64,000 nucleotides of DNA from Mycolicibacterium sp. TY81. GTDB lineage: Bacteria > Actinomycetota > Actinomycetes > Mycobacteriales > Mycobacteriaceae. A model generated the notes under the pieces. That model was not told the origin of the DNA, made no database searches, and worked only from the letters and a program-made list of their open reading frames with translations. This document shows, piece by piece, positions 41,098 through 56,056 of the stretch. Each line of letters opens with the position of its first letter. Position 1 is the stretch's first letter. The translations under genes and the position numbers were made by a program. The stretch covers positions 1,860,001 to 1,924,000 of the forward strand of contig NZ_AP023362.1 in assembly GCF_018326285.1 (NCBI RefSeq), given 5' to 3'.

Positions 41098-41122
41098 TTA
41101 CCCAGCGCGATGGTCAACAAAC
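41098..41122 (-). promoter_or_regulatory. SigF-type promoter of katE
   Basis: On the minus strand GTTT (41122-41119), 15 bp, then GGGTAA (41103-41098). The -10 box ends 9 bp before the GTG, so the mRNA would be leaderless or nearly so. Confidence 0.75.
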
Positions 41123-41143
41123 GCGGCGGTGGGCAGCCCTGAT

Positions 41144-42148
41144 TCACAATGATGCGGCCGACGGATAGTCCGCTGCGTCGAGGTTCGCCGCGGGCGTGAC
41201 CTGCTTGACGAACTCGCCGATGTAGTGGATCGCCCGCCGCCCTTCGGGCAGGACGGGAGCGGCAAGCGGAAAGTCGTGGATCTGCCCGTCCCACATGTGA
41301 AGTTCGCACTGTGCCCCCGCGGCGGTCAACCGCTCGTACATCAGTTCCGCGTCGGGCCGGAGAAACTCGTCGCTGCTGACGTGGATCAACACCGGCGGCA
41401 TCCGGCGCAGGTCCGCGTCGACGGGCGAGGCGATCGGCTGCCCGGACGGATTCTTCTCACCGTGCGCGGCGACGTAGCGCATGAACGACGTCATGGCGCG
41501 TGCCGTGAACATGGCGCACCGGTCCTTGCCGCTGGGGGATTTGTCGCGCGGGTTGAGCGTCGTCAGGGGAGAGATCGCCGCCACGCCGGCGGTGGGCGGG
41601 TGGCCGTCCCGAAGCAGTTCGGCCGCGGTCTGCAGGGCGAGGTATCCGCCCGCGGAATCTCCGGCCACCACGATGTCGGACCAGTGGTAGCCGCGGCGCA
41701 GCAGCCAGCGGAGCCCGTCGACCGCGTCTGCCAGTGCCGCCGACAGTCCGTGAGCGGGCAACATGCGATAGCCGACATTGAGTACTTCGGCGCCTGCGCT
41801 GCGGGACAGCTGGGCGGCAAAGGATCGGTGCGTGTTGAGACCACAGGTGAGAAACGCCCCGCCGTGTAGGTAGAGGATGGCGCGCCGGGCCGACGAGTCG
41901 GTGGTGCCGATCAATTCGGCCCGGCAAGACGGCAGTCGGACTGGCTCAACCGTCGCCGATCTCGGCAGCGGGGCCAGCGCGGCGACCTGATCGATGGCAC
42001 TGAAGGGCCAGTGCAGATTCGGCTGCAGGGCCCACATCCGTACCGCGTTCTTCACGAACACCCGGCAGAAGGCGCCGATTGCCTGAGATTGTGGGCTGCG
42101 TCGGCGGTGATGGTGCCGTACTCCCTGGCCATGCCGAATATTTCGCAT
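41144..42148 (-). CDS. Alpha/beta-hydrolase, hormone-sensitive-lipase (fold-3) family
   Basis: 334 residues from the ATG at 42148, nine bases after AGGAG; the open frame runs 420 bp further up but crosses the promoter region and the csbD gene. The oxyanion motif is YLHGGAF near 130, and the nucleophile elbow GDSAGG is near 200. The Asp and His of the triad are likely in SSDEFLRPDAELMY and DGQIHDFPL. Substrates of mycobacterial Lip proteins are short- to medium-chain esters. The gene has its own SigF-type promoter. Confidence 0.85.
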   Translation of the reverse strand: MRNIRHGQGVRHHHRRRSPQSQAIGAFCRVFVKNAVRMWALQPNLHWPFSAIDQVAALAPLPRSATVEPVRLPSCRAELIGTTDSSARRAILYLHGGAFLTCGLNTHRSFAAQLSRSAGAEVLNVGYRMLPAHGLSAALADAVDGLRWLLRRGYHWSDIVVAGDSAGGYLALQTAAELLRDGHPPTAGVAAISPLTTLNPRDKSPSGKDRCAMFTARAMTSFMRYVAAHGEKNPSGQPIASPVDADLRRMPPVLIHVSSDEFLRPDAELMYERLTAAGAQCELHMWDGQIHDFPLAAPVLPEGRRAIHYIGEFVKQVTPAANLDAADYPSAASL

Positions 42149-42171
42149 TGTGATCAACTCCTGGGCACTCG

Positions 42172-42197
42172 ATACCCACGCCGGATTTTGATCAAAC
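42172..42197 (-). promoter_or_regulatory. SigF-type promoter of the lipase-family gene
   Basis: GTTT (42197-42194), 16 bp, GGGTAT (42177-42172) on the minus strand, about 24 bp upstream of the start codon. It is back to back with a plus-strand site that drives csbD. Confidence 0.72.
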
Positions 42198-42211
42198 GTT
42201 GCGCCGGAGCA

Positions 42212-42238
42212 GGTTTCCGATGGGCGTAGACCAGGTAT
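42212..42238 (+). promoter_or_regulatory. SigF-like promoter of csbD
   Basis: GGTTT (42212-42216), 16 bp, AGGTAT (42233-42238). The -10 box differs from GGGTAT at one base. A leader of roughly 85 bases would precede the csbD GTG. Confidence 0.55.
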
Positions 42239-42329
42239 GTCGGTAGTGCCGGATTGTTCAACGGAATCAAATGCGCCGAGCAGGCCGAGGTGCTGCTCGC
42301 CAAGCGCGCGAACACAAGGAGGAAATGCA

Positions 42330-42566
42330 GTGGGAGAGAACAAGAGTGGTCCTGAAGAGGGCATCAAGGGCACCGTCGAGGGTGTCAAGGGCAAGCTGAA
42401 GGAAGCTGCGGGTAGCGTCGTCGGCCGGGATGACATGGTCCGTGAGGGCCAGGCCCAGCAGGACAAGGCCGACGCCGAGCGCGATGCGGCCAAGAAAGAG
42501 GCGGAGACCGAGTCGGCCCGCTCCGGTGCGCAGGCCGCGGAGAAACGGCAGCAGCAGAACCAGTGA
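42330..42566 (+). CDS. CsbD-like general stress protein
   Basis: 78 residues from a GTG seven bases after AAGGAGG. It is a CsbD-type sequence, Gly/Lys/Glu-rich and predicted helical, with KGTVEGVKGKLKEAAGSVVG and then a long charged alanine-rich helix. CsbD proteins are small cytoplasmic proteins induced in the general stress response; their molecular role is unknown. It ends at a strong hairpin. Confidence 0.85.
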   Translation: MGENKSGPEEGIKGTVEGVKGKLKEAAGSVVGRDDMVREGQAQQDKADAERDAAKKEAETESARSGAQAAEKRQQQNQ

Positions 42567-42569
42567 ACC

Positions 42570-42617
42570 AAGAACGGCCCGGCCTCCTTTCACGGTGGGG
42601 AGGCCGGGCCGCTTCTT
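42570..42617. terminator. Bidirectional terminator between csbD and the DUF6328 gene
   Basis: A 12-bp perfect stem (GGCCCGGCCTCC with its complement) is flanked by AAGAA on the left and TTCTT on the right. It lies between convergent stops. Confidence 0.85.
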
Positions 42618-42626
42618 GCGCGAAAA

Positions 42627-43157
42627 CTATTGTGCGCGAGCGGTATCGTTGCGTCCGCTGTTCTGCATGGCCAAAGGCACCAGCACCCAGAACGTGCAGA
42701 AGCCGGCCAGGCCGATGCCGCCGGCGACCCAGCCCGCCACCTGGCCCGCGACGGTACCGAAGATCAGTTCGGTCACTCCGGTAAGGGCCATACCGAGCAG
42801 GAGTAGGCCGTAGAAGGCGCATCGGTGGGCTGCGGCGACGATCAAGGACATGCGTCGTTGTCGAAACAGTATGCGGTGCATGCCAACTGGTGCTATCAGT
42901 AGAATCGCCGACGCGACCGAGAAGGCCACGGTCGCCAGGTAGACGGTCTGGCTCTGGTCATCCAGTGTGGTGAACCGTTGCTGGAACGGCAATGTCATCA
43001 GAAAGCCGGTGAGCAGCTGCACTCCGGTCTGAGCGACGCGGAGTTCTTGCAACAGACTCGACCAATTGCGGTCCAGCCGCTCCATTTCGGTCTCGTGACG
43101 GGCCATCCGGTCCCATCTCTGGTCGGATGGGCCCTCGTCACCGTGCTCGCCCGTCAT
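42627..43157 (-). CDS. DUF6328-like four-helix membrane protein
   Basis: 176 residues from the ATG at 43157 (an ATG at 43166 is possible). The N-terminus is cytoplasmic and charged, with RHETEMERLDRNWSSLLQELRVAQTG, which leads into four hydrophobic helices. The N-terminal ELRVAQTGVQLLTGFLMTLPF segment is typical of DUF6328 proteins of unknown function. The start overlaps the end of the small upstream gene by about 20 bp, so translation is probably coupled. It belongs to the SigF-type transcript that starts near 43770. Confidence 0.75.
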   Translation of the reverse strand: MTGEHGDEGPSDQRWDRMARHETEMERLDRNWSSLLQELRVAQTGVQLLTGFLMTLPFQQRFTTLDDQSQTVYLATVAFSVASAILLIAPVGMHRILFRQRRMSLIVAAAHRCAFYGLLLLGMALTGVTELIFGTVAGQVAGWVAGGIGLAGFCTFWVLVPLAMQNSGRNDTARAQ

Positions 43158-43338
43158 CGGACACATCGTTCTTGCGTCGAACTTTCTCGCGGTCGACGAC
43201 AGTGATGCGGTCGTCTGGCCCCGAACCGTAGAAACTGAAGATGTCCTTGTGCGGCAAGGATTCCACCTGGATTTCGCGGGCGGTGAGCCAGGTGACGTCC
43301 GCGGGTCGGACGGCTTCGACCGTCGTGTCAGTGGTCAC
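43138..43338 (-). CDS. Small charged protein, unknown
   Basis: 66 residues from a GTG five bases after AAGGGGA. The protein reads DVTWLTAREIQVESLPHKD in its first half and ends in a basic/acidic tail (DREKVRRKNDVSDDGRAR). It lies 17 bp downstream of one membrane-protein gene and overlaps the start of the next, so it looks like a real middle gene of a three-gene operon. No family recognised. Confidence 0.55.
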   Translation of the reverse strand: MTTDTTVEAVRPADVTWLTAREIQVESLPHKDIFSFYGSGPDDRITVVDREKVRRKNDVSDDGRAR

Positions 43339-43355
43339 CGGAATCCCCTTTTCTC

Positions 43356-43727
43356 TCAGGGGGTTTCGAAGCTGAACGTGAGGACGGCGAATCCGGCGAT
43401 CAGCAACGCCCAGGCGACCAGCGGTACCACGATGCCGTGGCGGGTCTTCGCGGTCACGAACGACAGCGCGACGGCGAGCACGGCGACCACGGGCGCGCCG
43501 TACTCGATCAGCCCGAACACGAATGGGCTCGGACCCAGCTTGGCGCAGGTGCGTTCGGAGCAGCCCGCGGTCGCGAGGACCTGGGCGTATTGATACAGGA
43601 TGATGGCGAGGGCGCCCGGCACGGTGAGGCCGGCCAGCACCCAATTGATGACGGTGCGGCGCCGGTGTCCGTCTCCCTGTGCGTCTGCATCGTGTTGCGC
43701 GATCGCCCCGGTCTGGACCTCAGACAT
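43356..43727 (-). CDS. Small three-helix membrane protein, unknown
   Basis: 123 residues from the ATG at 43727, five bases after GGGAGG; the GTG at 43733 would overlap that RBS. Three helices lie at about 28-50, 68-90 and 97-118, with a Cys pair (AGCSERTCAK) in the first external loop. It is the first gene of a SigF-type transcript divergent from a TPP enzyme gene. Function unknown. Confidence 0.65.
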   Translation of the reverse strand: MSEVQTGAIAQHDADAQGDGHRRRTVINWVLAGLTVPGALAIILYQYAQVLATAGCSERTCAKLGPSPFVFGLIEYGAPVVAVLAVALSFVTAKTRHGIVVPLVAWALLIAGFAVLTFSFETP

Positions 43728-43776
43728 CGACACCTCCCGGTGATAGCGGGTTTCATTCGTACTGTCCTGTGGTGGC

Positions 43777-43802
43777 GTACCCGGGCGGTCGGACCGCGAA
43801 AC
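43777..43802 (-). promoter_or_regulatory. SigF-type promoter of the small membrane-protein operon
   Basis: GTTT (43802-43799), 16 bp, GGGTAC (43782-43777) on the minus strand, 50 bp from the start. Its -35 box is 4 bp from the -35 box of the divergent promoter. Confidence 0.72.
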
Positions 43803-43806
43803 GCCT

Positions 43807-43831
43807 GTTTCGTCCGGTATCGCGGGGGTAC
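43807..43831 (+). promoter_or_regulatory. SigF-type promoter of the TPP-enzyme gene
   Basis: GTTT (43807-43810), 15 bp, GGGTAC (43826-43831). The ATG is 10 bp after the -10 box, so a leaderless transcript is predicted. Confidence 0.75.
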
Positions 43832-43840
43832 GTCGCCCTT

Positions 43841-45643
43841 ATGACGACGACTGTTGGGGATTACCTACTCGAGCGGCTGAGGCAGTGGCAGGTCCGTCAC
43901 GTGTTCGCCTATCCGGGCGACGGCATCAACGGGATCGTGGCCGCGTTCGGGCGCAGTGACGATGAGCCGCAATTCATTCAGACCCGCCATGAGGAGATGG
44001 CCGCGTTCGGAGCGACCGGATATGCCAAATTCGGTGGTGGCGTCGGTGTCTGTATGGCGACGTCAGGTCCGGGGGCCATCCACCTGCTGAACGGGCTGTA
44101 CGACGCGAAGCTCGACCACGTTCCCGTGGTGGCGATCGTGGGTCAGACGGCGCGCAGCGCGATGGGCGGTAGCTATCAGCAGGAAGTCGATCTGCACAGT
44201 CTCTACAAGGATGTCGCGAGCGACTACCTGGTCGAGGTCAACGTCGCCAACCAACTGCCCAACGCGCTCGATCGGGCGATGCGCACCGCTTTGGCCCGGC
44301 GTGCGCCGACGGCCCTGGTGATCCCGTCTGATTTGCAGGAGCAGCCGTACGAACCTCCGCAACACGAGTTCAAGCAGGTGCCGTCGAGTGATCCGCAGTA
44401 TGTGCCACCCGCCGTGCATTCGCAGGACGAACAGGTCCGCAAAGCTGCCGAGGTGCTCAATGCCGGTGAGCGCGTGGCGATTCTGGTCGGCCAGGGTGCC
44501 CGCGGCGCCGCCGATCAGGTGCGCGAACTCGCCGACAAGACCGGAGCCGGTGTCGCCAAGGCGCTGTTGGGTAAGGACGTGCTGTCCGATGATCTGCCGT
44601 ATGTCACCGGATCCATCGGGTTGCTCGGCTCGCGACCCAGCTACGAGATGATGCGCGACTGCGACACCCTGTTGATCGTCGGATCGAATTTCCCGTACAG
44701 CCAGTTTCTGCCGAAGTTCGGCCAGGCCCGGGCGATTCAGATCGACATCGACGGGACCGCGATCGGCATGCGCTACCCGACGGAGGTCAACATCGTCGCC
44801 GACGCGGGTGCCGCGCTCGGTGCGATACTGCCACTGCTGGAGCCGAAAACCGACCGGAAATGGCGAGATACTGTCGAGCACAACGTCTCTCGGTGGTGGG
44901 ACATCGTCGCGCGCCAGTGCATGTTGTCGGCCCGGCCGGTCAACCCGATGCGGGTCGCGTGGGAGCTTTCGCAGCGGATACCGTCGAACGCGATCGTGAC
45001 GGCTGATTCTGGTTCATCCACCAATTGGTATGCGCGTTGCCTCAAGTTCCGCGGTGAGATGCGCGGTTCGCTGTCGGGCACCCTCGCCACCATGGGGCCC
45101 GCTGTGCCGTACGCGATCGGTGCGAAGTTCGTGCATCCGGACCGACCCGTCGTGGCGCTCGTCGGCGACGGTGCGATGCAGATGAACGGGATGGCCGAGC
45201 TTTTGACCATCAAGCGCTACATGGCGCAGTGGTCTGACCCGCGGCTGGTGGTGTGTGTCTTCCACAACGGCGACCTGAATCAGGTCACCTGGGAGTTGCG
45301 GGCAATGGGCGGAGCGCCCAAATTCGTGCCGTCACAATCGCTACCGGACGTCTCGTATGCCGAGATCGCCTGTGCCGTGGGATTGGAAGGCATCACCGTC
45401 GACAACCCCGATCGGCTCGGCGAGGCCTGGGACCGGGCACTGGGCGCCGACCGCCCCGTCGTATTGGACGTCAGGTGCGATCCCGAAGTGCCGCCGATTC
45501 CGCCGCATGCCACCTACGAACAGATCAAAGACATGACCGCCGCGGTTCTCAAGGGTGACCCCAACGGCTGGCACCTGGTCTATCAGGGCGTGAAAACCAA
45601 GGCGCAGGAGTTCATCGCCCGTTCCGGTGGTGGCGCCGGTTAG
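43841..45643 (+). CDS. Thiamine-pyrophosphate enzyme, pyruvate oxidase/dehydrogenase (PoxB) type
   Basis: 600 residues from the ATG at 43841; no RBS is seen, which fits a leaderless mRNA. The N-terminal PYR domain has VFAYPGDGINGIVAAF and the catalytic Glu in TRHEEMAAFGATGYAKF. The central domain spans about 190-340. The C-terminal PP domain carries the TPP motif LVGDGAMQMNG with Asn later in FHNGDLNQ. Overall it is closest to pyruvate oxidase/quinone-dependent pyruvate dehydrogenase, though acetolactate-synthase-like roles cannot be excluded. Expression under stress is implied by its promoter. Confidence 0.85.
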   Translation: MTTTVGDYLLERLRQWQVRHVFAYPGDGINGIVAAFGRSDDEPQFIQTRHEEMAAFGATGYAKFGGGVGVCMATSGPGAIHLLNGLYDAKLDHVPVVAIVGQTARSAMGGSYQQEVDLHSLYKDVASDYLVEVNVANQLPNALDRAMRTALARRAPTALVIPSDLQEQPYEPPQHEFKQVPSSDPQYVPPAVHSQDEQVRKAAEVLNAGERVAILVGQGARGAADQVRELADKTGAGVAKALLGKDVLSDDLPYVTGSIGLLGSRPSYEMMRDCDTLLIVGSNFPYSQFLPKFGQARAIQIDIDGTAIGMRYPTEVNIVADAGAALGAILPLLEPKTDRKWRDTVEHNVSRWWDIVARQCMLSARPVNPMRVAWELSQRIPSNAIVTADSGSSTNWYARCLKFRGEMRGSLSGTLATMGPAVPYAIGAKFVHPDRPVVALVGDGAMQMNGMAELLTIKRYMAQWSDPRLVVCVFHNGDLNQVTWELRAMGGAPKFVPSQSLPDVSYAEIACAVGLEGITVDNPDRLGEAWDRALGADRPVVLDVRCDPEVPPIPPHATYEQIKDMTAAVLKGDPNGWHLVYQGVKTKAQEFIARSGGGAG

Positions 45644-45921
45644 CCGCGTGTAGTGTGAGGAACACGACGCTGTTGTACAGCGTGGCCGCTTAGCCAAAAG
45701 CGGCATCAGTCGAGGGACTACAACTCGGCGCGTGAATCCGGTCCAGAGCGGGGCCTCAATTCTCAGGATTCGCCGAATGTGGTCGGGTTCGACTACGGCA
45801 GATTGCCGTTCCGCCTGCAAGGCGGAAAACAGCATGTCGCTGATCCACCGCATTCTCGTAATTGTCAATGTCGTCAATCGGTGGTGTCGTGCGTGCTGTA
45901 ACACCCTGGAAGGGGTGCTGC
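45644..45921 (+). other. Intergenic region with two hairpins, original leader of the sigma gene
   Basis: No convincing gene is seen in these 278 bp. Two perfect 7-bp hairpins are present: GCCGCTT-N6-AAGCGGC (45685-45704), probably the terminator of the TPP gene, and TTCCGCC-N5-GGCGGAA (45809-45827). The region ends with GGAAGGGG ahead of the ATG at 45922. It should contain the native promoter of the sigma gene now separated by the IS. I find no SigF-type consensus here. Confidence 0.6.
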
Positions 45922-45938
45922 ATGTCAGTTTCTCTGTT
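45922..45938 (+). pseudogene. Detached original 5' end of the SigF-family gene
   Basis: ATG TCA GTT TCT CTG TT follows an RBS (GGAAGGGG). Removing the IS and one copy of the GTT duplication joins this fragment in frame to the sigma-factor ORF at TTG GAA AAC. The first five codons and two bases of the sixth are thus stranded upstream of the element. Confidence 0.85.
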
Positions 45939-45989
45939 TGAACCATCCCGCGTTTGATGCGCACCTCCTTCCTTGGGAAGGTGCATGTC

Positions 45990-46304
45990 ATGCCGAGCAA
46001 GTACGACCCGGAGACCCGAGCGAAGGCGGTCCGTCTGGTGCGCGAGCACCGGGAGGACTATCCGAGCGAGTGGGCGGCGATTACCGCGGTGTCCAAACGG
46101 TTGGGGATGAACGCCGAGACGCTGCGTAATTGGATTCGCCAGCAACAGGTCGATGACGGTGATCGAGACGGGGTCTCTTCGGAGGCGGCTGCGGAGATCC
46201 GGGCGTTGAAACGGCGTAACGCCGAGCTGGAGCAGACTATCGAAATCCTCAAGGCGGCAACGTCTTTCTTCGTGCGGGAGAGCGACCCGCGCAGCCGCCG
46301 CTGA
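45990..46304 (+). CDS. IS3-family transposase OrfA
   Basis: 104 residues from the ATG at 45990. There is an N-terminal helix-turn-helix at about 15-50 (RAKAVRLVREHRE...NAETLRNWIRQQQ) and a C-terminal leucine-zipper-like helix (IRALKRRNAELEQTIEILKAATSFF), the standard OrfA plan. OrfA binds the IS ends and, through a programmed frameshift near its 3' end, provides the N-terminal half of the OrfAB transposase. A short hairpin CCTTCC-TTG-GGAAGG lies just upstream of the start. Confidence 0.9.
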   Translation: MPSKYDPETRAKAVRLVREHREDYPSEWAAITAVSKRLGMNAETLRNWIRQQQVDDGDRDGVSSEAAAEIRALKRRNAELEQTIEILKAATSFFVRESDPRSRR

Positions 46305-47284
46305 CCGCTACGGTCTGCGAGTTCATCGCCGCCCACCGGGACCGTTTCGGGGTCGCTCCGATCTGTCGCGTGCTCACCGAGCACGCCGTGCCGATCGCCC
46401 CGCGGACATTTCATGCCTGGGCGGTGCGGGCGCCCTCGAAACGGGCCCTGTGGGACGCCACGATCACCGAGATCCTAGCCGGCTACTACGAGCCTGATGA
46501 GCACGGACGCCGCAGGCCCGAGTCGCTGTACGGGTCGCTGAAGATGTGGGCCCATCTGCAGCGTCAGGGCATCCCGGTGGCCAAGTCCACCGTGGAACGC
46601 CTGATGCGCAAGAACGGCTGGCAAGGCGTGCGCCGCCAGAAGAGGGTCCGCACCACGATCCCCGACCCGGAGGCGGTGCGACCGCCGGACCTGGTGGACC
46701 GCCAGTTCGGGGTGGCCGCACCCAACGTGCTGCTCGTGGCCGACTTCACCTACGTCAAGCTCGTCACCGGCGTGTTCGTCTACGTCGCGTTCGTCATCGA
46801 CGCCTACGCCGGGTCGATCGTGGGCTGGGAAGCCTCGGCGTCCAAGCACACCCGCTTCGTCGAATCCGCGCTGCGTCAGGCCGCTGCACTGCGTGCCCGC
46901 CAAGGCCATCCCGTCGACGGCGCAATCCATCACAGCGACGCCGGCTCGCAGTACACGAGTGTGAGATTCGGTGAGACACTGAGCCTTTCGGGAATTCGCC
47001 CGTCCGTGGGCAGTGTTGGGGATGCCTTCGACAACGCGCTGGCTGAGACGACCATCGGCCTGTACAAGAACGAATGTGTCCGGGCGGATTCCCCGTTTCG
47101 CCGCGGCCCACTGAACACCGTGGGCGACGTCGAATACATCACCGCCGACTACGTCGCCTGGTACAACCAGCAGCGCCTGATGCACCGCCTCGGACGCATT
47201 CCGCCGGCCGAAGCCGAAGCCCGCTACTATTCCCAACTCGTGACCGGTAGACCGGCCGGATCACAGAAACCTGAGGGTGCATGA
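46265..47284 (+). CDS. IS3-family transposase OrfB (DDE integrase domain), read by -1 frameshift
   Basis: The frame is open from about 46262, and IS3-like homology (CEFIAAHRDRFGVAPICRVL) begins well before the first ATG at 46370, so it is normally produced as an OrfAB fusion by a -1 slip on the pyrimidine run TCTTTCTTC at 46263-46271. The DDE residues are visible: D in VADFTYVKL, D in HHSDAGSQYTS and E in NALAETTIGLYKNE. It appears intact. Its TGA overlaps an ATG (ATGA) that opens the sigma-factor ORF. Confidence 0.9.
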   Translation, partial: FLRAGERPAQPPLTATVCEFIAAHRDRFGVAPICRVLTEHAVPIAPRTFHAWAVRAPSKRALWDATITEILAGYYEPDEHGRRRPESLYGSLKMWAHLQRQGIPVAKSTVERLMRKNGWQGVRRQKRVRTTIPDPEAVRPPDLVDRQFGVAAPNVLLVADFTYVKLVTGVFVYVAFVIDAYAGSIVGWEASASKHTRFVESALRQAAALRARQGHPVDGAIHHSDAGSQYTSVRFGETLSLSGIRPSVGSVGDAFDNALAETTIGLYKNECVRADSPFRRGPLNTVGDVEYITADYVAWYNQQRLMHRLGRIPPAEAEARYYSQLVTGRPAGSQKPEGA

Positions 47285-48123
47285 AACCCGGGACGGTTCA
47301 GTTGGAAAACGATTCTCGTGAAGTGAGTGAGCCGGTAAAGGCCGACTCCGTGGTGGATCAAAGTCCTGACGAATACGCGGATGTGGTCACGATGGTCGCG
47401 GTGCTCCGTCAATTACCGCCGGACTCCGACGCCTATGCCCGTCAACTCGAACGCATCGTGCTGCGGTGTTGCCCGCTGGCGGACCGGGTGGCACGCCACT
47501 TCGACCGTCGCGGCGAGAATCTCGAAGATTTGATCCAGGTCGCGCGGGTGGGATTGCTGCAGGCGGTCAACCGGTTCGATCCTGCGCGGGGGTCGCGGTT
47601 CGTGGCATTCGCCCTGCCCACGATGATGGGGGAGTTGCGCCGATACTTCCGTGACTATGGCTGGAAGGTCCACGTACCCAGGCGGATTCGCGATCGTCAG
47701 CACGACATTGCGTGTGCCACCGCATATTTGACGAGCGACCTGCGGAGGGCGCCGAGTATCGAGGAGCTCGCCGAGGAACTGGAGATCGACCGCGAGCAGG
47801 TTGTGGAGAGCATCGTGGCGGCGAAGGCGTATCAGCCCCAGTCACTGGACGTCAACGTCGGCGACGACGATGCGCGAACGCAGGCGCTCGGTGACTCGCT
47901 CGGTGAGATGGATGCCGGCTTCGACCGGGTGACGGATCGTGAGTCCGTACGGTCCCTGCTGGCGGCGCTGCCGCGACGCGAGCAGAAGGTGCTCTACCTG
48001 CGGTACTTCGGTGCCATGACGCAGCGGCAGATCGCGGACTCGATCGGCGTTTCTCAGATGCACGTGTCACGGATATTGGACCGGACCTTGCGTGACCTGC
48101 GAACTCAAGTGGGTTGCGCCTGA
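47281..48123 (+). CDS. SigF-family RNA polymerase sigma factor with IS-derived N-terminus
   Basis: 280 residues as now encoded. The first seven codons come from the IS right end; the native protein would start MSVSLLENDS. Region 2 is at about 60-130 (LADRVARHF, DLIQVARVGLLQAVNRFDPARGS), region 3 at about 150-200, and region 4 at about 215-275 with the helix-turn-helix TQRQIADSIGVSQMHVSRIL. It resembles mycobacterial SigF (group 3, SigB/F/G type). All sigma regions are intact. No anti-sigma or anti-anti-sigma gene is adjacent. Translation may now be coupled to the transposase through ATGA; the native promoter and RBS are 1.36 kb away. Confidence 0.9.
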   Translation: MKPGTVQLENDSREVSEPVKADSVVDQSPDEYADVVTMVAVLRQLPPDSDAYARQLERIVLRCCPLADRVARHFDRRGENLEDLIQVARVGLLQAVNRFDPARGSRFVAFALPTMMGELRRYFRDYGWKVHVPRRIRDRQHDIACATAYLTSDLRRAPSIEELAEELEIDREQVVESIVAAKAYQPQSLDVNVGDDDARTQALGDSLGEMDAGFDRVTDRESVRSLLAALPRREQKVLYLRYFGAMTQRQIADSIGVSQMHVSRILDRTLRDLRTQVGCA

Positions 48124-48341
48124 TCGGCGGTGCCCTTTCGGCCATCGGCGGCAGACCGGGTCTGCCGCCGATGACTGGTGTCGCACCACGGATAGGTCTT
48201 GCTGCGCTGGCAGCAGCAGATGGCGACCATGAATCTGTCCGAACAGACCCGGGTGCCGTCATCGAGTTCGATTTCGACCGGTCCCTGGATCAGCATCGGG
48301 CCCCGCGGCACGATTCGCACGGTTCTTCGGGTGGTACTCAT
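48105..48341 (-). CDS. CDGSH-type iron-sulfur protein (variant motif)
   Basis: 78 residues from the ATG at 48341, which overlaps the methyltransferase stop (ATGA). The cluster-binding motif reads CCCQRSKTYPWCDTSH, matching C-x-C-x2-S-x3-P-x-C-D-x-S-H, with Thr in place of the usual Gly. Three Cys and one His would hold a [2Fe-2S] cluster. Such small proteins carry electrons or clusters; in mycobacteria they sit beside a HemK-like methyltransferase as here. The 3' end overlaps the sigma gene tail-to-tail by 19 bp. Confidence 0.82.
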   Translation of the reverse strand: MSTTRRTVRIVPRGPMLIQGPVEIELDDGTRVCSDRFMVAICCCQRSKTYPWCDTSHRRQTRSAADGRKGTADQAQPT

Positions 48342-49016
48342 GGCTTCACCGCCTTGATGACGGCCAGTTCTTCGGTGCGCCGTCCGGGGTCCAAGCGACC
48401 GGTGTCCTCCAACCAGCGGGCCCGCGCGGTCATCACGGGCCCGAATGCGATGGTCCGGCGCGCCACCACATCGGCCTGAAGCCCGCCGTCCCGCAAGGCG
48501 GTGACGCTGCTCGCGACATCGGCGAATTCGGACTGGACGATCAGTGCGGTGCCGCCGCGCCTGAGCAGCGCGGGCGCCGCGGCGCAGAGCGGATCGAGGA
48601 CGAGCCGGCCATCGGGGCCCGCATTGAAGGATGCGGGGGGGACCGCCGGCGCCGACGATCACCGGTTCGCGGTTCGCGGGTTCCGGCACGTACGGCGGGT
48701 TGCACAGCACGAGATCGAACGGCTCGAGTCCCATTGCTGCAGACCAGGAGCCGAGTCGCGCATCGATCGGACATCCGGCGAGTCGCGCATTGGCGCGCGC
48801 CGCCGCGATGGCGGCGTGCGAGGTATCGAAGGCGACCACGGTGTCCGCCCCGGCATCGGCGGCAGCAATCGCCGCCACCCCGCTGCCGGTACACAGGTCC
48901 GCGACGCGCATGCCCGCCGGGTGGCAGCAGCGGCGCATGACTTCGATCAGTAATCGCGAATCATGTTGCGGCAGATAGACGTTTGCGCACTCAGGCGAGA
49001 TTTCGGAGCTCAGCAT
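48338..49016 (-). pseudogene. HemK/PrmC-like protein methyltransferase, frameshifted in a C7 run
   Basis: It starts at the ATG at 49016 after AGAGGAAG. The first 125 residues are a normal SAM-dependent methyltransferase, with VADLCTGSGVAAIAA (SAM loop) and the catalytic LCNPPYVPEP. At 48635-48641 a run of seven C on the coding strand shifts the frame. With six C the protein continues ASFNAGPDGRLVLDP and ends ELAVIKAVKP at 48338, giving about 225 residues, the normal size. As written, the 5' frame instead runs on into the CDGSH gene and would yield a 300-plus-residue hybrid. This is either a real mutation, a phase-variable tract or a sequencing error. Confidence 0.85.
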
Positions 49017-49048
49017 CGGGCTTCCTCTCTGGATCCAACCTCTCCGAT

Positions 49049-49074
49049 ATAACCGCGAAGTGGCATCGGCAAAC
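49049..49074 (-). promoter_or_regulatory. SigF-like promoter of the methyltransferase-CDGSH operon
   Basis: GTTT (49074-49071), 16 bp, GGTTAT (49054-49049) on the minus strand. The -10 box has one mismatch to GGGTAT. It lies about 33 bp from the start codon. Confidence 0.5.
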
Positions 49075-49139
49075 GCGTCGAATCGGTAACGCCGCACGAG
49101 GTGGACGGTTTTGATGCCGCCGGGAACGGGTAACAAGCC

Positions 49140-49913
49140 TCAATGCCGGGTCACGGTGACAGCCAACGGGCGGTGATCCGAGAGTTCCACCTGCGGGGTG
49201 GTGTGTCGGAGCGCCGTCAGCTGCCGGTCGTCGGTCAGCACGTGGTCGAGCTGCCGGGTCGGTGCATCGGCCGGGAACGTGTCGGCACACGCCAGCGAAC
49301 GCATACCCGACCAGCGCGCTGCCGGGTCCGGTGCCATGTTCAAGTCGCCGGCGATGATGTGCGGCCCCGGCAGGGCGCGAACCGTACGGGCCAGCTGCCG
49401 CAGTTGATGGCGATTCCAGCCGGGCACGAACGACAAATGCGTGCTGGCGATCGTCATGGCGCCCAACGGCGTATCGAGCCGTGCCAGCACTGCGGCGCGC
49501 GGCTCCTCGTGCACGATCATCACTCTTCCGGGTACCGACAGATACATCGGAAAGCGTGTCGGTATGCGGGGCAGCCGCAGTACCTGCCAGCTGCTCGCCG
49601 GATAACGCGAGAGCAGGGAGATGCCGTACGCCGCCGACGCCGGCTGTTCCTCGCCGGTGGCCGCGATCCAGGTGGCGCCGGGCGTTCCGGTGATGGCGGC
49701 GACGAAACGGTGCGACACCGCGTTCATGACCTCGGCGGCGATGGCCGTCAGATCGGCTCGGCCGGAACGAGATTGATCGAAATCCACTTCCTGCAGCGCC
49801 AGGATGTCCGGGTCGAGGGTGCTGATACTGCGGCGCAGTCTATCGAGATGGACGCCGTCGCCGACGGTGCGGCCGTGCAGGATGTTGAAGGTCGCGAGAC
49901 GCATCGAAGTCAT
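49140..49913 (-). CDS. Endonuclease/exonuclease/phosphatase-family hydrolase
   Basis: 257 residues from the ATG at 49913 (alternative at 49904, giving MRLATFN). EEP-fold motifs are in order: RLATFNILHGR, the metal Glu in LALQEVDFDQSRSG, STHLSF, IAGDLNMAPD, LDHVLTDD and the final SDHRPLAV. These are the Asn, Glu, Asp and His residues of the Mg-dependent active site. The substrate could be a nucleic acid or a phospho-lipid head group. The gene lies upstream of the methyltransferase on the same strand, 123 bp apart, and is divergent from the nucleotidyltransferase gene. Confidence 0.85.
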   Translation of the reverse strand: MTSMRLATFNILHGRTVGDGVHLDRLRRSISTLDPDILALQEVDFDQSRSGRADLTAIAAEVMNAVSHRFVAAITGTPGATWIAATGEEQPASAAYGISLLSRYPASSWQVLRLPRIPTRFPMYLSVPGRVMIVHEEPRAAVLARLDTPLGAMTIASTHLSFVPGWNRHQLRQLARTVRALPGPHIIAGDLNMAPDPAARWSGMRSLACADTFPADAPTRQLDHVLTDDRQLTALRHTTPQVELSDHRPLAVTVTRH

Positions 49914-49959
49914 GAGGACTCGATACCCCCGAACGCCGAATTTGATTGCTCGGTCCGTC

Positions 49960-50508
49960 ATGTGTCCTGAGCGCACCCCATTGCGAAATGCACTACGCGC
50001 CGCGGCGAGTGCCTTCAAAGCGAACGCCCAGAGTTTCGCGCTTGCCGGCAGCTACGCCCTGTGGGTCCACGGCGCACCGGAACCTGATCACGACGTCGAT
50101 TTCGTCGTTCCCGAGCCGGACACCGAGTCGGCGGCGAAAATCCTGGGGCAGAACGGGTTCGACATCGAACGAACGCCCGAAGATTGGCTCTTCAAAGCGT
50201 ACTTCGACGGCGTGCTCGTCGATGTCCTGCACCGGATCAACGGTGTTCCGGTGGACTCGGTTCTGCTCGCCGGGGCCGTGGTGCGCGACGTGCTGGCCAT
50301 CTCGATGCCGGTCCTTACCCCGAATGCGGTGATAACCCAGAAGCTGCTGACGCTCAATGAACATCACTGCGACTTCGCGCCACTGCTCCCGGCGGTCCGG
50401 GCCGTTCGTGAGCAGCTCGACTGGCCACGAATTCGGGACCTGGCGGCCGAAAACGACTTCGCCATGGCTTTTCTCGAGCTGGCGGCACGCCTGCGCTTGG
50501 ACCGGTGA
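49960..50508 (+). CDS. Nucleotidyltransferase-fold protein
   Basis: 182 residues from the ATG at 49960; other in-frame starts exist upstream. The polymerase-beta-type motif is LAGSYALWVHGAPEPDHDVDF, Gly-Ser followed by Asp-x-Asp, and a further acidic residue may lie in the LVDVLHRI strand. This resembles stand-alone nucleotidyltransferases such as AbiEii/MenA-type toxins or aminoglycoside nucleotidyltransferase-like proteins. No antitoxin-like partner is beside it. The function is unproved. Confidence 0.65.
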   Translation: MCPERTPLRNALRAAASAFKANAQSFALAGSYALWVHGAPEPDHDVDFVVPEPDTESAAKILGQNGFDIERTPEDWLFKAYFDGVLVDVLHRINGVPVDSVLLAGAVVRDVLAISMPVLTPNAVITQKLLTLNEHHCDFAPLLPAVRAVREQLDWPRIRDLAAENDFAMAFLELAARLRLDR

Positions 50509-50531
50509 CGCGGTCTTTTTCTTGCGCGTTA

Positions 50532-50557
50532 GTTTGCCATCACGCGCCCATGGGTAC
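50532..50557 (+). promoter_or_regulatory. SigF-type promoter of the small membrane-protein pair
   Basis: GTTT (50532-50535), 16 bp, GGGTAC (50552-50557), giving a leader of about 35 bases before the ATG at 50598. Confidence 0.72.
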
Positions 50558-50597
50558 TTCTTCCGATGAGACCACAGGGGTCTGTGTAGGAGGAGCC

Positions 50598-50810
50598 ATG
50601 TTGCGAGGAAGCGTGGGCGTCATCGTGGTGGTCTGGCTGCTGATCGGTGTACTGGCAGCCTGGCAGCGCGACTATTTCCGCGGCGGCGACACCAGCTGCG
50701 GTTCGGCAGGGCGTATCGCGCTGACCGTGGTAGCCGGGCCGTTGAACTACGCCGGGGTCAATCCGAAGGTCGTCGATTGCCGACTGCCTCAACCAAGTGC
50801 GATGCGGTGA
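50598..50810 (+). CDS. Small membrane protein, unknown
   Basis: 70 residues from the ATG behind AGGAGGAG; the longer open frame upstream crosses the promoter. One helix lies at about 4-24 (VGVIVVVWLLIGVLAAWQR), followed by a polar tail with two Cys (DTSCGSAG, VVDCRLPQ). Proteins of this type are common in mycobacteria without known function. It is the first gene of a SigF-type transcript. Confidence 0.65.
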   Translation: MLRGSVGVIVVVWLLIGVLAAWQRDYFRGGDTSCGSAGRIALTVVAGPLNYAGVNPKVVDCRLPQPSAMR

Positions 50811-50839
50811 ACCGCGTCCGAGATAAGGAAACGATCATC

Positions 50840-50995
50840 ATGATTGCTTTGGGAGTAGTGCTGCTCATCCTGGGCTTCGTCTTCAACGTGTATCTGTTGT
50901 GGACCCTGGGCATCGTGCTCGTTGTGGTGGGCGCGATCTTCTGGCTCCTCGGGGCGGCCGGCCATGCCGTCGGCGGACGCCGTACCTGGTATTGA
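50840..50995 (+). CDS. DUF6131-like 51-residue membrane protein
   Basis: 51 residues from the ATG at 50840 preceded by AAGGAA. Two closely spaced hydrophobic helices (MIALGVVLLILGFVFNVYLL and a second one ending FWLLGAAGHAVG) are followed by a short basic end. It fits the DUF6131 family of tiny membrane proteins. It starts 29 bp after the previous stop, probably in the same transcript, and ends before a strong hairpin. Confidence 0.7.
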   Translation: MIALGVVLLILGFVFNVYLLWTLGIVLVVVGAIFWLLGAAGHAVGGRRTWY

Positions 50996-51008
50996 TGCGA
51001 CGCGAGGG

Positions 51009-51040
51009 GCAAAAGCCCGGGCTCAGGCCCGGGCTTTTGC
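51009..51040. terminator. Bidirectional terminator containing the DoxX stop codon
   Basis: GCAAAAGCCCGGGC and its complement form a perfect 14-bp stem with loop TCAG, followed by CTTCTTTG on the plus strand. The stop codon of the convergent doxX-like gene lies in the loop, so the hairpin doubles as coding sequence for the last residues of that protein. Confidence 0.88.
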
Positions 51041-51826
51041 CTTCTTTGCGGTAGTGACCGCGGTGTCGGCCAACTCCGACGCGCGTGAGCTGGCCTTCCG
51101 ATACGCGGATTCCGCATAGGGGGCGGCCTTTTCCAGGCCGTCGCCCAGGGTATCGGCCAAGTCAGAAGCACGTGCGCTGGCTTTCCGGTAGGCGGATTCC
51201 GCATACGGCGCGGCTTTCTCGAGGCCGTCTTCCAGTTTCTCGAGCGCGACGCCGGCGAGTTCGCGGCCGTGCTCGAATCCGGTCTGGACTCCGTGGCCGA
51301 CCTTCTCGCCCAGCTCCGGCATTCGGGCCAGCGCGATTTCGGTCCTGGACGGAACTGTCGATGAGAGCGCCTCGGCTGCCCGCTGGGCCGCTCGCCGTCC
51401 CCGCCAGCCCAGCGACGGCTTTCCGGCGGTATCCGCCGAGGCGAGGATCAGACCGCCGAGCAGGCTGAGGTCGGCCAGGAAGCCGCGACGTTTGGCGGCT
51501 TTGGCCTCCGGGTCGTCCTCGGTCCAGAACATGTGGTGGCCGAGATTTGCGGGAATCACCGTTGCCGCGAGCACCGCGGAGGCCACGCGCGGAATACGTC
51601 CGGTGGCCAGCAGCAGACCACCGGCGACCTGGGCGGCCGCGGTCGCTTGCGCCACGGCGACGGCATTGGACGGCACGTTGCGTGCCACGGGATCCGGCAT
51701 GTCCTTCAGTCCGTCGAGCGCGGGGCGTACTGCCTCGGCGCCGGAGTCGGTGTTCAACAGGGTTTCGACGCCCTGTCCGATGAAGGCGGTGGCCAGAAGT
51801 GGACGGGCGATCCTACGAATGATCAT
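51023..51826 (-). CDS. DoxX-family membrane protein with helical repeat tail
   Basis: 267 residues from the ATG at 51826 (MIIRRIARPLLATAFIGQG). The DoxX-like membrane part spans about 1-140, with ARPLLATAFIGQGVETL, VAGGLLLATGRIPRVASAVLA and HHMFW. After a linker, the last 90 residues are soluble amphipathic helix with a 29-residue unit present twice. DoxX proteins are membrane parts of oxidoreductase complexes in some bacteria; the role here is unknown. It is the last gene of a SigF-type operon with the SDR and a small acidic protein. Confidence 0.8.
   Translation of the reverse strand: MIIRRIARPLLATAFIGQGVETLLNTDSGAEAVRPALDGLKDMPDPVARNVPSNAVAVAQATAAAQVAGGLLLATGRIPRVASAVLAATVIPANLGHHMFWTEDDPEAKAAKRRGFLADLSLLGGLILASADTAGKPSLGWRGRRAAQRAAEALSSTVPSRTEIALARMPELGEKVGHGVQTGFEHGRELAGVALEKLEDGLEKAAPYAESAYRKASARASDLADTLGDGLEKAAPYAESAYRKASSRASELADTAVTTAKKAKARA
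51059..51232 (-). repeat. Tandem 87-bp duplication in the DoxX C-terminal tail
   Basis: Two adjacent 29-codon units share DGLEKAAPYAESAYRKAS and RAS-LADT. Only a few residues differ, indicating a fairly recent in-frame duplication of an amphipathic helix. Confidence 0.85.
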
Positions 51827-51862
51827 GGAGCAGGGATTTCCCCTGCGGCTCTGCCCCAAACA

Positions 51863-52699
51863 TCAACCCGGCATCGTCTCGCCGCCGAGGGGCGCCAGCA
51901 CCTCACCGCTGTAATACGACGACAGTTGGTCGGCGGCGAAGAAGACGTACGACGGTGCGATCTCGTCCGGCTGGGCCGGCCGGTCGAATGGCGCGTTGCC
52001 GCCGAACGACTCGACCTTCTCCTGCGGCATGGTGGCCGGGATGAGCGGCGTCCAGACCGGCCCGGGGGCAACGCAGTTCACGCGGATGCGACGTTTCGCC
52101 AGGGACTGGGCCAGCGCGTAGGTGAACGCGATGACGGCGCCCTTGGTGGCCGAATAGTCGATCAGCGACGCATTGCCGCGTAGCCCGTTCACCGACGCGG
52201 TGTTGATGATCGCAGCGCCGTCCGGGAGATGCGCCAGCGCGGCCTTCGTCACCTGGAAGTAGCTGTCGATGTTCACGGCGAACGTCCGGCGCCATTGCTC
52301 GTCGCTGATGTCGGTGAGATCGTCTGTGGGCGCCTGAAAGGCGGCATTGTTGACGACGATGTCGAGGCCGCCCAGCTCGGCGAGTGTGCGCGCCACCACC
52401 TCGCGGCAATGGGCGGGCTCTCCGAGATCACCGGGGAACAGGGCACACGTCCGGCCGGCCGCACCGACAACGGTCGCGGTGTGGGTCGCGTCGTCGTGCT
52501 CTTCGAGGTACGCGATGGAGACATCGGCGCCTTCTTTGGCGAACGCCACCGCCACCGCGCGTCCGATGCCGGAGTCGCCGCCGGTGATGAGGGCCCGGCG
52601 TCCTTTCAAGAGGCCACGGCCGACGTACGCGCGCATCTCATCGTGCGGCTGTTCAGCCATGTCCGCGGTGTGCCCGGGATACGGGATCGGTGTATTCAT
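51863..52699 (-). CDS. YghA-like short-chain dehydrogenase, general-stress type
   Basis: 278 residues. The extended N-terminus (1-35) typical of the YghA/GsiB-associated SDR group precedes ALITGGDSGIGRAVA. NNAAFQ (NNAG-like) is near 115, the catalytic Ser in INTASVNG near 170, and YSATKGA near 183. It is an NAD(P)-dependent oxidoreductase of unknown substrate; homologues are induced by general stress. It starts 1 bp after the stop of the small acidic gene upstream and is followed 36 bp later by doxX. Confidence 0.88.
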   Translation of the reverse strand: MNTPIPYPGHTADMAEQPHDEMRAYVGRGLLKGRRALITGGDSGIGRAVAVAFAKEGADVSIAYLEEHDDATHTATVVGAAGRTCALFPGDLGEPAHCREVVARTLAELGGLDIVVNNAAFQAPTDDLTDISDEQWRRTFAVNIDSYFQVTKAALAHLPDGAAIINTASVNGLRGNASLIDYSATKGAVIAFTYALAQSLAKRRIRVNCVAPGPVWTPLIPATMPQEKVESFGGNAPFDRPAQPDEIAPSYVFFAADQLSSYYSGEVLAPLGGETMPG

Positions 52700-52700
52700 C

Positions 52701-52907
52701 TCAGGCGTCGCGTCCGAAATCGTCCTCGTCGACGTCTATTTCGACGTCCGCGCTCTGCTCCAACCAGTCGTGCGCGGCGGCCTCCGTCGGCGGGTTCTCG
52801 CGGCCGCTGACCGCCGCCTCGTCGTCGAGGGCCTGTTCTTGGACGTCGCGCGACTGCTCGACGGCGTCTGCGTCGGGGACCGCATCCGGGAACTGTTCTG
52901 GTGTCAT
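52701..52907 (-). CDS. Small acidic protein, unknown
   Basis: 68 residues, very acidic (Asp/Glu throughout), with EQSRDVQEQALDDEAAV in the centre and VEIDVDEDDFGRDA at the end. It has no recognisable fold. Support as a gene: its ATG lies 10 bp after a perfect SigF-type promoter, and the stop is separated by one base from the SDR start. Confidence 0.6.
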   Translation of the reverse strand: MTPEQFPDAVPDADAVEQSRDVQEQALDDEAAVSGRENPPTEAAAHDWLEQSADVEIDVDEDDFGRDA

Positions 52908-52917
52908 GTCAGAGCGG

Positions 52918-52942
52918 ATACCCGCCCCGCACGCCGGAAAAC
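52918..52942 (-). promoter_or_regulatory. SigF-type promoter of the acidic protein-SDR-doxX operon
   Basis: GTTT (52942-52939), 15 bp, GGGTAT (52923-52918) on the minus strand: a full match to the consensus. The ATG at 52907 is close enough for a leaderless or near-leaderless mRNA. Confidence 0.78.
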
Positions 52943-53060
52943 ACTTCGTGTGTTCACGGGCCGGACGCTCGGGTACCTGGGCTCGCGTGACGGCGAACCA
53001 TGGACGAGATTGGCCAAACCCTTTGTTTCAGTGCCGATTTCGGACCTTCGGGCTTCTGAG

Positions 53061-53360
53061 TCAGCTCGTCGGCGGGGTCCGCGGCTCACCGGGGTGAGCC
53101 TGGAGGAATTCGAGTTCGCGTTGGCGGATGCGGCGGTGCCGGACGAAGAGCCACGCGCCACCCACCACGGCCAGCACAGCTGCGAGCAGCAGGATCACGC
53201 CGCCGGTTCCGGGGTCACCGCTGGCGAAGAAGTACAGGCTCACGACCAGGGTGGCCACCGCGAGCGCAACAGCCACCAGGCCCGGAGCGTTCGTGCCGTC
53301 CTTCAAGGATTCGCCGGCATGCGGCCGGGTGGTGCGAGCATGGTCGACGGGGTCTTTCAT
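53061..53360 (-). CDS. UsfY-like membrane protein
   Basis: 99 residues from the ATG at 53360, eight bases after AGGAGG. The N-terminus KDPVDHARTTRPHAGESLKD resembles UsfY, a small protein encoded by the SigF locus of mycobacteria. Two helices follow at about 28-48 and 53-75, then a basic tail. Function unknown. It lies 55 bp downstream of the decarboxylase gene on the same strand. If the UsfY call is right, it supports the view of this region as a SigF-associated island. Confidence 0.62.
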   Translation of the reverse strand: MKDPVDHARTTRPHAGESLKDGTNAPGLVAVALAVATLVVSLYFFASGDPGTGGVILLLAAVLAVVGGAWLFVRHRRIRQRELEFLQAHPGEPRTPPTS

Positions 53361-53415
53361 GGAATGCCTCCTGGGGATCAGTCCTCGACGTTCTAATGCC
53401 CGGTGCAGGGCGGTT

Positions 53416-54882: not shown

Positions 54883-54894
54883 GGTGTCGTTGGC

Positions 54895-54919
54895 ATACCC
54901 GTGGTGCCGCCGTCTACAC
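54895..54919 (-). promoter_or_regulatory. SigF-like promoter of the decarboxylase gene
   Basis: GTGT (54919-54916, one mismatch to GTTT), 15 bp, GGGTAT (54900-54895) on the minus strand, 12 bp from the ATG. Confidence 0.5.
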
Positions 54920-54923
54920 CCGG

Positions 54924-54949
54924 GTTTAGCGGCCCCCGTCTGCGGGTAT
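54924..54949 (+). promoter_or_regulatory. SigF-type promoter of the iron redox protein gene
   Basis: GTTT (54924-54927), 16 bp, GGGTAT (54944-54949): a full consensus match, followed by GGGGAGG and the ATG at 54962. Confidence 0.77.
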
Positions 54950-54961
54950 CGGGGAGGTCTC

Positions 54962-55981
54962 ATGTGCACAGAAGAACTTGTTCAGCCTTTGCTACCGGAC
55001 CCCCGCGGTCCCGTGTCCAGTGTCGTCATCGGACTGCTGGGCGAGCGCCTGCCCACGCAGTATCTGGCGCGGATACAGTTGCCGCTCGCGAACGCCGATC
55101 CCTTTGGCCTCGACCTGCAGTTGGCGCTGTACGTCTGCTACGAACTGCACTACCGCGGCTTCGCCGGCACCGACGAAAAGTGGGAATGGAACCCCGCCCT
55201 CCTCGATGTTCGTCATCGCATCGAGGAGCGGTTCCTGGCCGCCGTGAGAGAGCTCGTCGGCCCCATCAGCCCGGACAGCACGGCGCAAGCCGAGCTGGCT
55301 CGTTGTGACACCGACCCTGTCGATGATTCGAGTCTGTCTGTCTATCTCCAAGATCAGGCGACGTGGCCGCAGATGCAGGAGTACTTCGTGCATCGGTCGC
55401 TGTACCACCTCAAGGAAGCCGACCCGCAGTCGTGGATCATTCCGCGGCTGACCGGTCGCGCGAAAGCCGCGTTCGTGGCGGTGGAATACGACGAATACGG
55501 CGGCCATGGCGGGTACGCATCCATGCACCAGCGGCTGTTCGCCGATCTGCTCGATGCCGCGGGTCTGCGCAGCGACTATTTGCACTACCTCGGCAATGCG
55601 ATGGGCAGCACCCTGGCCGCGGTGAATCTCATGTCGATGTTCGGTCTGCACCGCCACCTGCGCGGCGCGGCCGTCGGCCATTTCGCCGCAACCGAACTGA
55701 CCTCGTCGCCGGGATCGCACCGAATCGTGAAGGGCCTCAAGAGGCTTGGTGCTCCGCGACCCTGCGTCGACTTTTATCGGGAACACGTCGAGGCCGACGC
55801 GGTTCATGAACAAGTGGTCCGCAAGGACGTCGTGGCAGACCTGGTGTCGCGCGAGCCCGGCCTGGAACGGGACATCGTTTTCGGTATTCGCGCCTTCGAC
55901 GCGATCGAGGGACGGCTCGCCGATCACATGCTGTCCAGCTGGGCGGCAGGGTGCCCGTCGCTGCAGCACTGGCCCGTTTGA
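54962..55981 (+). CDS. Iron-containing redox enzyme family protein (haem-oxygenase-like di-iron fold)
   Basis: 339 residues from the ATG at 54962 behind GGGGAGG. It is an all-helical protein of the haem-oxygenase-like di-iron superfamily. Candidate metal ligands are in EYFVHRSLYHLKEADP (His and Glu) near 140, VEYDEYGGHGGYASMHQRLF near 175, and HFAATELTSSPGSHR near 240. Related enzymes carry out varied oxidative reactions on amino acids or fatty acids. The reaction here is unknown. Opposite lies a PLP decarboxylase; both appear stress-controlled. Confidence 0.78.
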   Translation: MCTEELVQPLLPDPRGPVSSVVIGLLGERLPTQYLARIQLPLANADPFGLDLQLALYVCYELHYRGFAGTDEKWEWNPALLDVRHRIEERFLAAVRELVGPISPDSTAQAELARCDTDPVDDSSLSVYLQDQATWPQMQEYFVHRSLYHLKEADPQSWIIPRLTGRAKAAFVAVEYDEYGGHGGYASMHQRLFADLLDAAGLRSDYLHYLGNAMGSTLAAVNLMSMFGLHRHLRGAAVGHFAATELTSSPGSHRIVKGLKRLGAPRPCVDFYREHVEADAVHEQVVRKDVVADLVSREPGLERDIVFGIRAFDAIEGRLADHMLSSWAAGCPSLQHWPV

Positions 55982-56000: not shown

Positions 56001-56056
56001 TCGGTGAGGGACGCGCTCACAGCCCGAGCGCGTCTGACGTTCTCACAGGAGGAAAT

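What the first reader, a model, noticed from the sequence alone, without database searches (positions are those of the whole stretch)
45922..47345. IS3 element in codon six of a SigF-family gene supplies a new start codon
Removing 45939-47300 and one GTT copy rejoins ATG TCA GTT TCT CTG TTG GAA AAC in frame with the sigma ORF, and the original RBS (GGAAGGGG) remains upstream of the IS. The right end of the IS carries an in-frame ATG at 47281 that overlaps the transposase stop as ATGA. The sigma factor is therefore probably still made, now as a transposase-coupled product with a seven-residue IS-derived N-terminus instead of from its native promoter. An insertion that rewires rather than destroys a stress sigma factor is striking.
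Basis: partly seen in the sequence, partly recalled or inferred. Interest (0 to 1): 0.85.

Follow-up and report, generated by a model that had tools for sequence, protein, structure and literature searches.

The report
Jumping gene inside a sigma-factor start
A mobile DNA element has recently landed inside the sixth codon of a spare stress sigma-factor gene in a mycobacterium, cutting the gene off from its own start signal while by chance offering a weaker replacement start; whether the protein is still made is untested.

Summary
A complete 1362-bp IS3-family element (45939-47300, GTT duplicated) splits native codon 6 of a SigF-type sigma gene. Six distinct orthologues in other mycobacterial genomes lack it. 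In L012 the two window arms, aligned apart, overlap by exactly the 3-bp duplication. The sigma frame is open from an ATG at 47281 in the right inverted repeat, overlapping the orfB stop as ATGA.

The ATGA belongs to the IS end (9 of 9 close full-length copies). Long in-frame host ORFs follow it about as often as they follow random points (5 of 18; 22.6% expected). The new start has a weak Shine-Dalgarno match; the lost one is strong. Nothing upstream was removed and a simple scan found no terminator, so 'instead of its native promoter' is unsupported. Coupling through orfB would also need a -1 frameshift.

Best reading: a recent, probably expression-lowering insertion in one of three SigF-type genes, with leaky synthesis possible. 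A new point: in this phase both junctions have coupling geometry (TGATG in, ATGA out), but distant IS relatives do not conserve it. A known kind of event and a good test case.

The parts
43807..43830 (+). SigF-type promoter-like motif (GTTT-N15-GGGTA) before the upstream TPP-enzyme gene
   Evidence: 10 nt before the ATG at 43841, with counterparts in L012, L013 and L014
43841..45643 (+). Upstream gene, thiamine-pyrophosphate-requiring enzyme (start inferred)
   Evidence: NF006129 at 987 bits, matching from residue 55 of the longest ORF
45644..45921 (+). Conserved intergenic stretch before the sigma gene, with strong hairpins at 45667-45704 and 45795-45827
   Evidence: alignment with L012-L014, folds z -2.80 and -3.08, inverted repeats, leader search in 396 genomes
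45908..45915 (+). Native Shine-Dalgarno sequence
   Evidence: duplex -10.9 kcal/mol or -13.8
45922..45957 (+). Native start now opening an 11-codon ORF that stops at TGA 45955-45957, overlapping ATG 45957 of the orfA frame (TGATG)
45936..45938 (.). Left copy of the target duplication GTT
45939..47300 (+). IS3-family element
45990..46304 (+). orfA (own SD start ATG 45990; in-frame ATG 45957 and TTG 45954 upstream)
46223..47284 (+). orfB open frame, -1 relative to orfA, D-64-D-35-E core
46322..46402 (+). Partial, sub-threshold match to the ALIL frameshift pseudoknot RF01497 (26.4 bits, gathering 50, E 2.2e-4)
47281..47284 (+). ATGA: sigma-frame ATG overlapping the orfB stop
47281..48123 (+). Sigma ORF as it now reads, 280 aa; host-derived from codon TTG 47302
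47301..47303 (.). Right copy of the target duplication GTT

Best explanation
A recently transposed IS3-family element with intact orfA and orfB landed in codon 6 of one of three SigF-type sigma genes. Shown: anatomy, target duplication, uninterrupted orthologues, open sigma frame from ATG 47281. Inferred: transcription from the untouched upstream region runs through the co-directional IS into the sigma ORF. Sigma is then made at a reduced level from ATG 47281, partly by termination-reinitiation at ATGA after those ribosomes that shifted from orfA into orfB, partly by weak direct initiation. The result is an expression-lowering allele with an altered N-terminal tail. The in-frame start is a lucky phase, not an evolved device.
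For: Empty site in L012 and five more uninterrupted orthologues. Another copy in the genome is identical over 1362 bp, so the insertion is recent. The replaced residues lie in a tail that varies in sequence and length among orthologues. No terminator-like site found in 45600-47400. ATGA and TGATG are overlaps of the kind at which coupling has been measured (PMC6728339, abstract and passages; PMC10666635, abstract). Strong native SD against a weak new one.
Against: No transcript or protein data. ATGA coupling needs frameshifted ribosomes; the frameshift signal is only a partial, sub-threshold match and I identified no slippery site. GGGU before the ATG can pair with ACCC after it, though the fold is no stronger than shuffles. 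Internal starts TTG 47302 and ATG 47392 score as well as or better than ATG 47281 in one of the two SD scans or both. The terminator scan is simple and would miss terminators without a T run.
Confidence: 0.5

Rival explanations
1. Effective knock-out. The IS separates the sigma ORF from its strong SD, and polarity plus the need for a frameshift leave no meaningful synthesis. The ORF looks intact only because the insertion is young.
For: Weak SD at 47281. Identity to another copy means little time for decay. Two other SigF-type genes exist in the genome. Intergenic hairpins upstream could stop transcription.
Against: Complete, unbroken ORF with an in-frame ATG. No terminator-like site in the IS.
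Confidence: 0.3
2. Sigma is made from an internal start (TTG 47302, GTG 47323 or ATG 47392), so the IS-derived residues play no part.
For: With a core anti-SD, TTG 47302 scores -7.7 and ATG 47392 -7.4, against -6.1 for ATG 47281. With a longer 16S tail, ATG 47392 scores -11.4 against -8.4. A start at 47392 would still keep regions 2 to 4, which begin at residue 63.
Against: Orthologues start upstream at the native ATG. TTG 47302 scores slightly lower than 47281 with the longer tail (-7.7 against -8.4). GTG 47323 scores weakly.
Confidence: 0.12
3. Adaptive rewiring, the first reader's boldest reading: the insertion was kept because coupling sigma to the transposase changes stress control usefully.
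For: Both junctions have coupling geometry in this phase. The gene lies in a stretch rich in SigF-type motifs: 12 strict hits in the window, against a mean of 0.9 and a maximum of 3 in 20 base shuffles.
Against: In-frame exits occur at background rate. 0 of 14 distant IS relatives combine ATGA with a length divisible by three. Seen in one genome and very young.
Confidence: 0.08

Closest known systems
IS3-family insertion sequences
   Same: DDE core with D-35-E, two ORFs in -1 relation, terminal TG...CA repeats, 3-bp duplication, NF033516 over its cut-off for orfB
   Different: Nothing essential. The close subgroup ends orfB in ATGA inside the right repeat
Extra SigF copies in mycobacteria (three sigF genes in the M. 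mucogenicum clade, only sigF3 linked to its anti-sigma gene; PMC6917791, passages)
   Same: Three SigF-type genes, one of which has an rsbW-like neighbour
   Different: One of the extra copies carries an IS in codon 6
Termination-reinitiation at overlapping genes (PMC6728339, abstract and passages; PMC10666635, abstract)
   Same: ATGA (4-nt) and TGATG (1-nt) overlaps at the two junctions
   Different: The overlaps arise from an insertion and join a transposase to a host gene. Coupling not tested here
IS elements that activate neighbouring genes by outward or fusion promoters (PMC9330008, passages)
   Same: IS directly upstream of and co-directional with a host gene
   Different: What the IS offers here is a start codon, not a shown promoter. 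The simple scan found none

Membership tests
IS3 family | Transposase with DDE core, D-35-E spacing | tested here: met
   D-64-D-35-E in orfB; NF033516 224.9 bits, cut-off 160
IS3 family | orfA with helix-turn-helix and orfB in the -1 frame | tested here: met
   HTH_Tnp_1 32.1 bits, cut-off 24.1; frames
IS3 family | Terminal inverted repeats and a short target duplication | tested here: met
   19 of 22 end positions match; GTT duplication here, matching 3-bp duplications in 5 of 9 close copies
IS3 family | Programmed -1 frameshift making OrfAB | tested here: inconclusive
   Partial RF01497 match below the gathering score; slippery site not identified
SigB/SigF/SigG sigma factors (TIGR02980) | Score over the curated cut-off | tested here: met
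   281.4 bits, cut-off 234.35
Mycobacterial SigF (NF005514, PRK07122) | Score over the curated cut-off | tested here: not met
   362.6 bits, cut-off 372; the gene at 3,553,962 reaches 437.9. Hence 'SigF-type', not SigF itself
Mycobacterial SigF (NF005514, PRK07122) | rsbW-like anti-sigma gene next door | tested here: not met
   None of 16 PF13581 matches lies in the window; one lies beside the gene at 3,553,962
Termination-reinitiation gene pair | Stop and start overlap by 4 or 1 nt | tested here: met
   ATGA 47281-47284; TGATG 45955-45959
Termination-reinitiation gene pair | Translation of the second ORF depends on the first | not testable with these tools
   Needs a reporter with and without an early stop in orfB

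The most novel reading that the evidence does not exclude
In one of three insertion phases the close subgroup of this IS is a translational relay. A host ORF entering the left end stops at TGA inside TGATG and can hand ribosomes to orfA. The orfB stop inside ATGA hands them back to the same host frame, because the 1362-bp element is divisible by three and duplicates three bases. Here that would place the transposase behind a stress sigma gene's start signals and the sigma factor behind transposase translation.
Probability: 0.12. Interest if true: 0.6.

Novelty: new member of a known kind. Interest (0 to 1): 0.3.

Why it matters
It is a clean natural case for asking whether an IS can interrupt the first codons of a gene and yet leave it translated through its own stop/start overlap. 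If coupling were shown, genes hit by this IS subgroup in one phase of three should not simply be called disrupted. If not, it is an ordinary young insertion in one of several SigF-type genes.

Tried and rejected
Rejected: that the in-frame ATG is exceptional. One search found 18 right ends in 15 of 396 genomes (the window genome's four included). From the ATGA, 5 of 18 open at least 150 codons (L083, L088, L092, L096, L098). Random points in the window give 22.6% of 18,201, so about 4 are expected. At 280 codons or more it is 3 of 18, with 10.6% reaching 273 in the control. L083 (the same place as L058) is the remainder of another transposase gene (its IS256-type label is recalled). L088 and L092 were not named, L092 runs off the locus, and L096 has a longer ORF in another frame.

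Rejected: loss of the native promoter. Nothing upstream is removed. No strict SigF-type motif lies between 43831 and 49107, and one relaxed match lies inside the TPP gene at 44550. One TANNNT at 47225 in the IS end is, by my own estimate and no call, no more than base composition gives.

Rejected: a selected relay. Of 34 IS loci, both ends were found in 23; 11 gave no right end. ATGA is in 9 of 9 close copies, 7 of them 1362 bp and two 1363 bp. It is in 2 of 14 distant copies (L069, L074), neither of a length divisible by three. L081 and L082 look like the same element.

Inconclusive: selection. Window-private changes where six orthologues agree are 7 synonymous and 1 nonsynonymous over 265 codons. 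A first polarisation with three orthologues gave 28 and 4, against 16 and 6 for L012. No sign of decay, but most of it may predate the insertion.

Inconclusive: a leader hairpin enclosing SD and AUG. 96.4% of cells pair, but covariation is no better than shuffles (133 of 500), and z-scores lie between -1.2 and 0.5.

Literature: searches listed no title about an IS-supplied start codon through a stop/start overlap; two searches returned no papers. For these I saw listings only. Passages or abstracts were read of PMC6917791, PMC9330008, PMC4694148, PMC6728339 and PMC10666635.

Led nowhere: the genome collections hold one genome per species, so strains of the same species could not be compared.

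Full report
WHAT IS THERE. The window is bases 1,860,001-1,924,000 of contig 1 of a 6.47-Mb, four-contig genome. Its nearest named relatives at this locus are Mycolicibacterium/Mycobacterium strains. At 45939-47300 lies a complete IS3-family element: 1362 bp, ends TGAACC/GGTTCA, GTT on both sides, orfA with a helix-turn-helix, orfB in the -1 frame with a D-64-D-35-E core and NF033516 at 224.9 bits, cut-off 160. The genome holds four full copies. One other is identical over 1362 bp; two carry one extra C that breaks orfB.

THE TARGET GENE. The ORF downstream is a SigB/F/G-type sigma factor with regions 2, 3 and 4. Of five sigma matches in the genome, three are SigF-type (100, 65 and 48% identity) and two are distant (31 and 32%). 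The 48% gene at 3,553,962 scores over the SigF cut-off and has an rsbW-like neighbour. The window gene and the 65% one score just under that cut-off, and none of 16 rsbW-like matches lies in the window. Extra sigF copies away from the anti-sigma gene are known in other mycobacteria (PMC6917791, passages).

THE EMPTY SITE. Orthologues without the IS are L012, L013 and L014 and L120, L122 and L125. L121, L123 and L124 read like L012, L013 and L014 and are presumably the same genomes. Searching 396 genomes with 292 bp of leader gave matches in 11: the window genome, these six, and four with matches of only about 30 bases. All six distinct orthologues start at the ATG that corresponds to 45922. 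In L012 the window arms, aligned separately, overlap by exactly three bases. The genomes of L012 and L013 show no match to the IS and that of L014 only weak fragments. The genomes behind L120 and L122 hold distant copies (71-72%) elsewhere.

IS THE NEW START MORE THAN CHANCE? The ATGA is part of the IS end: 9 of 9 close and 2 of 14 distant full-length copies have it. Among 18 right ends in 15 of 396 genomes, 5 open at least 150 codons into host DNA. Random points in the window do so in 22.6% of 18,201 trials, and reach 273 codons in 10.6%. The in-frame exit is an ordinary phase.

COULD SIGMA STILL BE MADE? For: the frame is complete, and the replaced residues lie in a tail that varies among orthologues. 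The two overlaps, TGATG (native start into the orfA frame) and ATGA (orfB into sigma), are types at which coupling was measured: translation was strictly coupled in 13 of 14 tested pairs (PMC6728339, abstract and passages), and short overlaps are required (PMC10666635, abstract). No terminator-like site was found in 45600-47400. Against: the SD before ATG 47281 scores -6.1 kcal/mol with a core anti-SD, a level about a fifth of random positions reach, or -8.4 with a longer tail (9% of random positions). The native SD scores -10.9 and -13.8 (0.4 to 1.2% of random positions). Internal starts score as well or better in part. ATG 45957 at the left junction has essentially no SD, while orfA's own start at 45990 has a strong one, so the entry coupling may matter little. 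Ribosomes must shift frame to translate orfB, and only a partial, sub-threshold ALIL match supports that. In E. coli, removing the SD lowered reinitiation by 60-90% in three of five pairs, abolished it in one and did nothing in one. I expect low synthesis, if any.

TRANSCRIPTION. Nothing upstream was removed. The window has 12 strict SigF-type motifs (GTTT-N14-17-GGGTA, after the consensus in PMC4694148, passages), against a mean of 0.9 and a maximum of 3 in 20 base shuffles. One lies 10 nt before the upstream TPP gene, with counterparts in L012-L014. No strict motif lies between 43831 and 49107. The conserved intergenic stretch folds into strong hairpins (z -2.80 and -3.08) that could be terminators or regulators. 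Whether sigma is read from the upstream gene or from its own promoter is open. Replacement of the native promoter has no support.

AGE AND SELECTION. Identity to another copy makes the insertion recent. The sigma ORF shows no decay (7 synonymous and 1 nonsynonymous private changes), but this cannot speak about the time since insertion.

THE RELAY IDEA. The host phase that meets TGATG on entry meets ATGA on exit. L058 shows the same phase inside another transposase gene. The wider family does not conserve the arrangement. I give it 12%.

VERDICT. Observation confirmed, interpretation partly supported. A known kind of event with an unusual but chance-level junction; expression is the missing evidence.

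Noticed in passing
L003 and L004 (G000 contig 1, 4157072-4158434 and 1288524-1289886): Two of the four full IS copies share one extra C at IS position 540 that breaks orfB, yet sit at different places, which suggests movement with transposase supplied by another copy. L003 also lacks a matching 3-bp duplication.
   Followed up: partly
window 41099-59953: Twelve strict SigF-type promoter motifs cluster here, with counterparts near the sigma gene in L012-L014: a likely SigF-type regulon neighbourhood.
   Followed up: partly
window 45660-45840: Strong conserved hairpins between the TPP gene and the sigma gene (z -2.80 and -3.08), perhaps terminators or a regulatory RNA; no Rfam match there up to E 1.
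   Followed up: partly
window 45891-45927: A possible two-step hairpin encloses the native SD and AUG in 7 sequences, but covariation is no better than shuffles.
   Followed up: yes
G168 contig 42 (1-77) and G027 contig 49 (6586-6640): Ends of this IS at 100% identity in two other species' genomes (77 and 55 bp), hinting at recent spread. That call scored only two candidates a genome.
   Followed up: no
L058 (G129 contig 16): A related IS copy (82%) sits in the same phase inside another transposase gene, so its ATGA opens the 209-codon remainder.
   Followed up: partly
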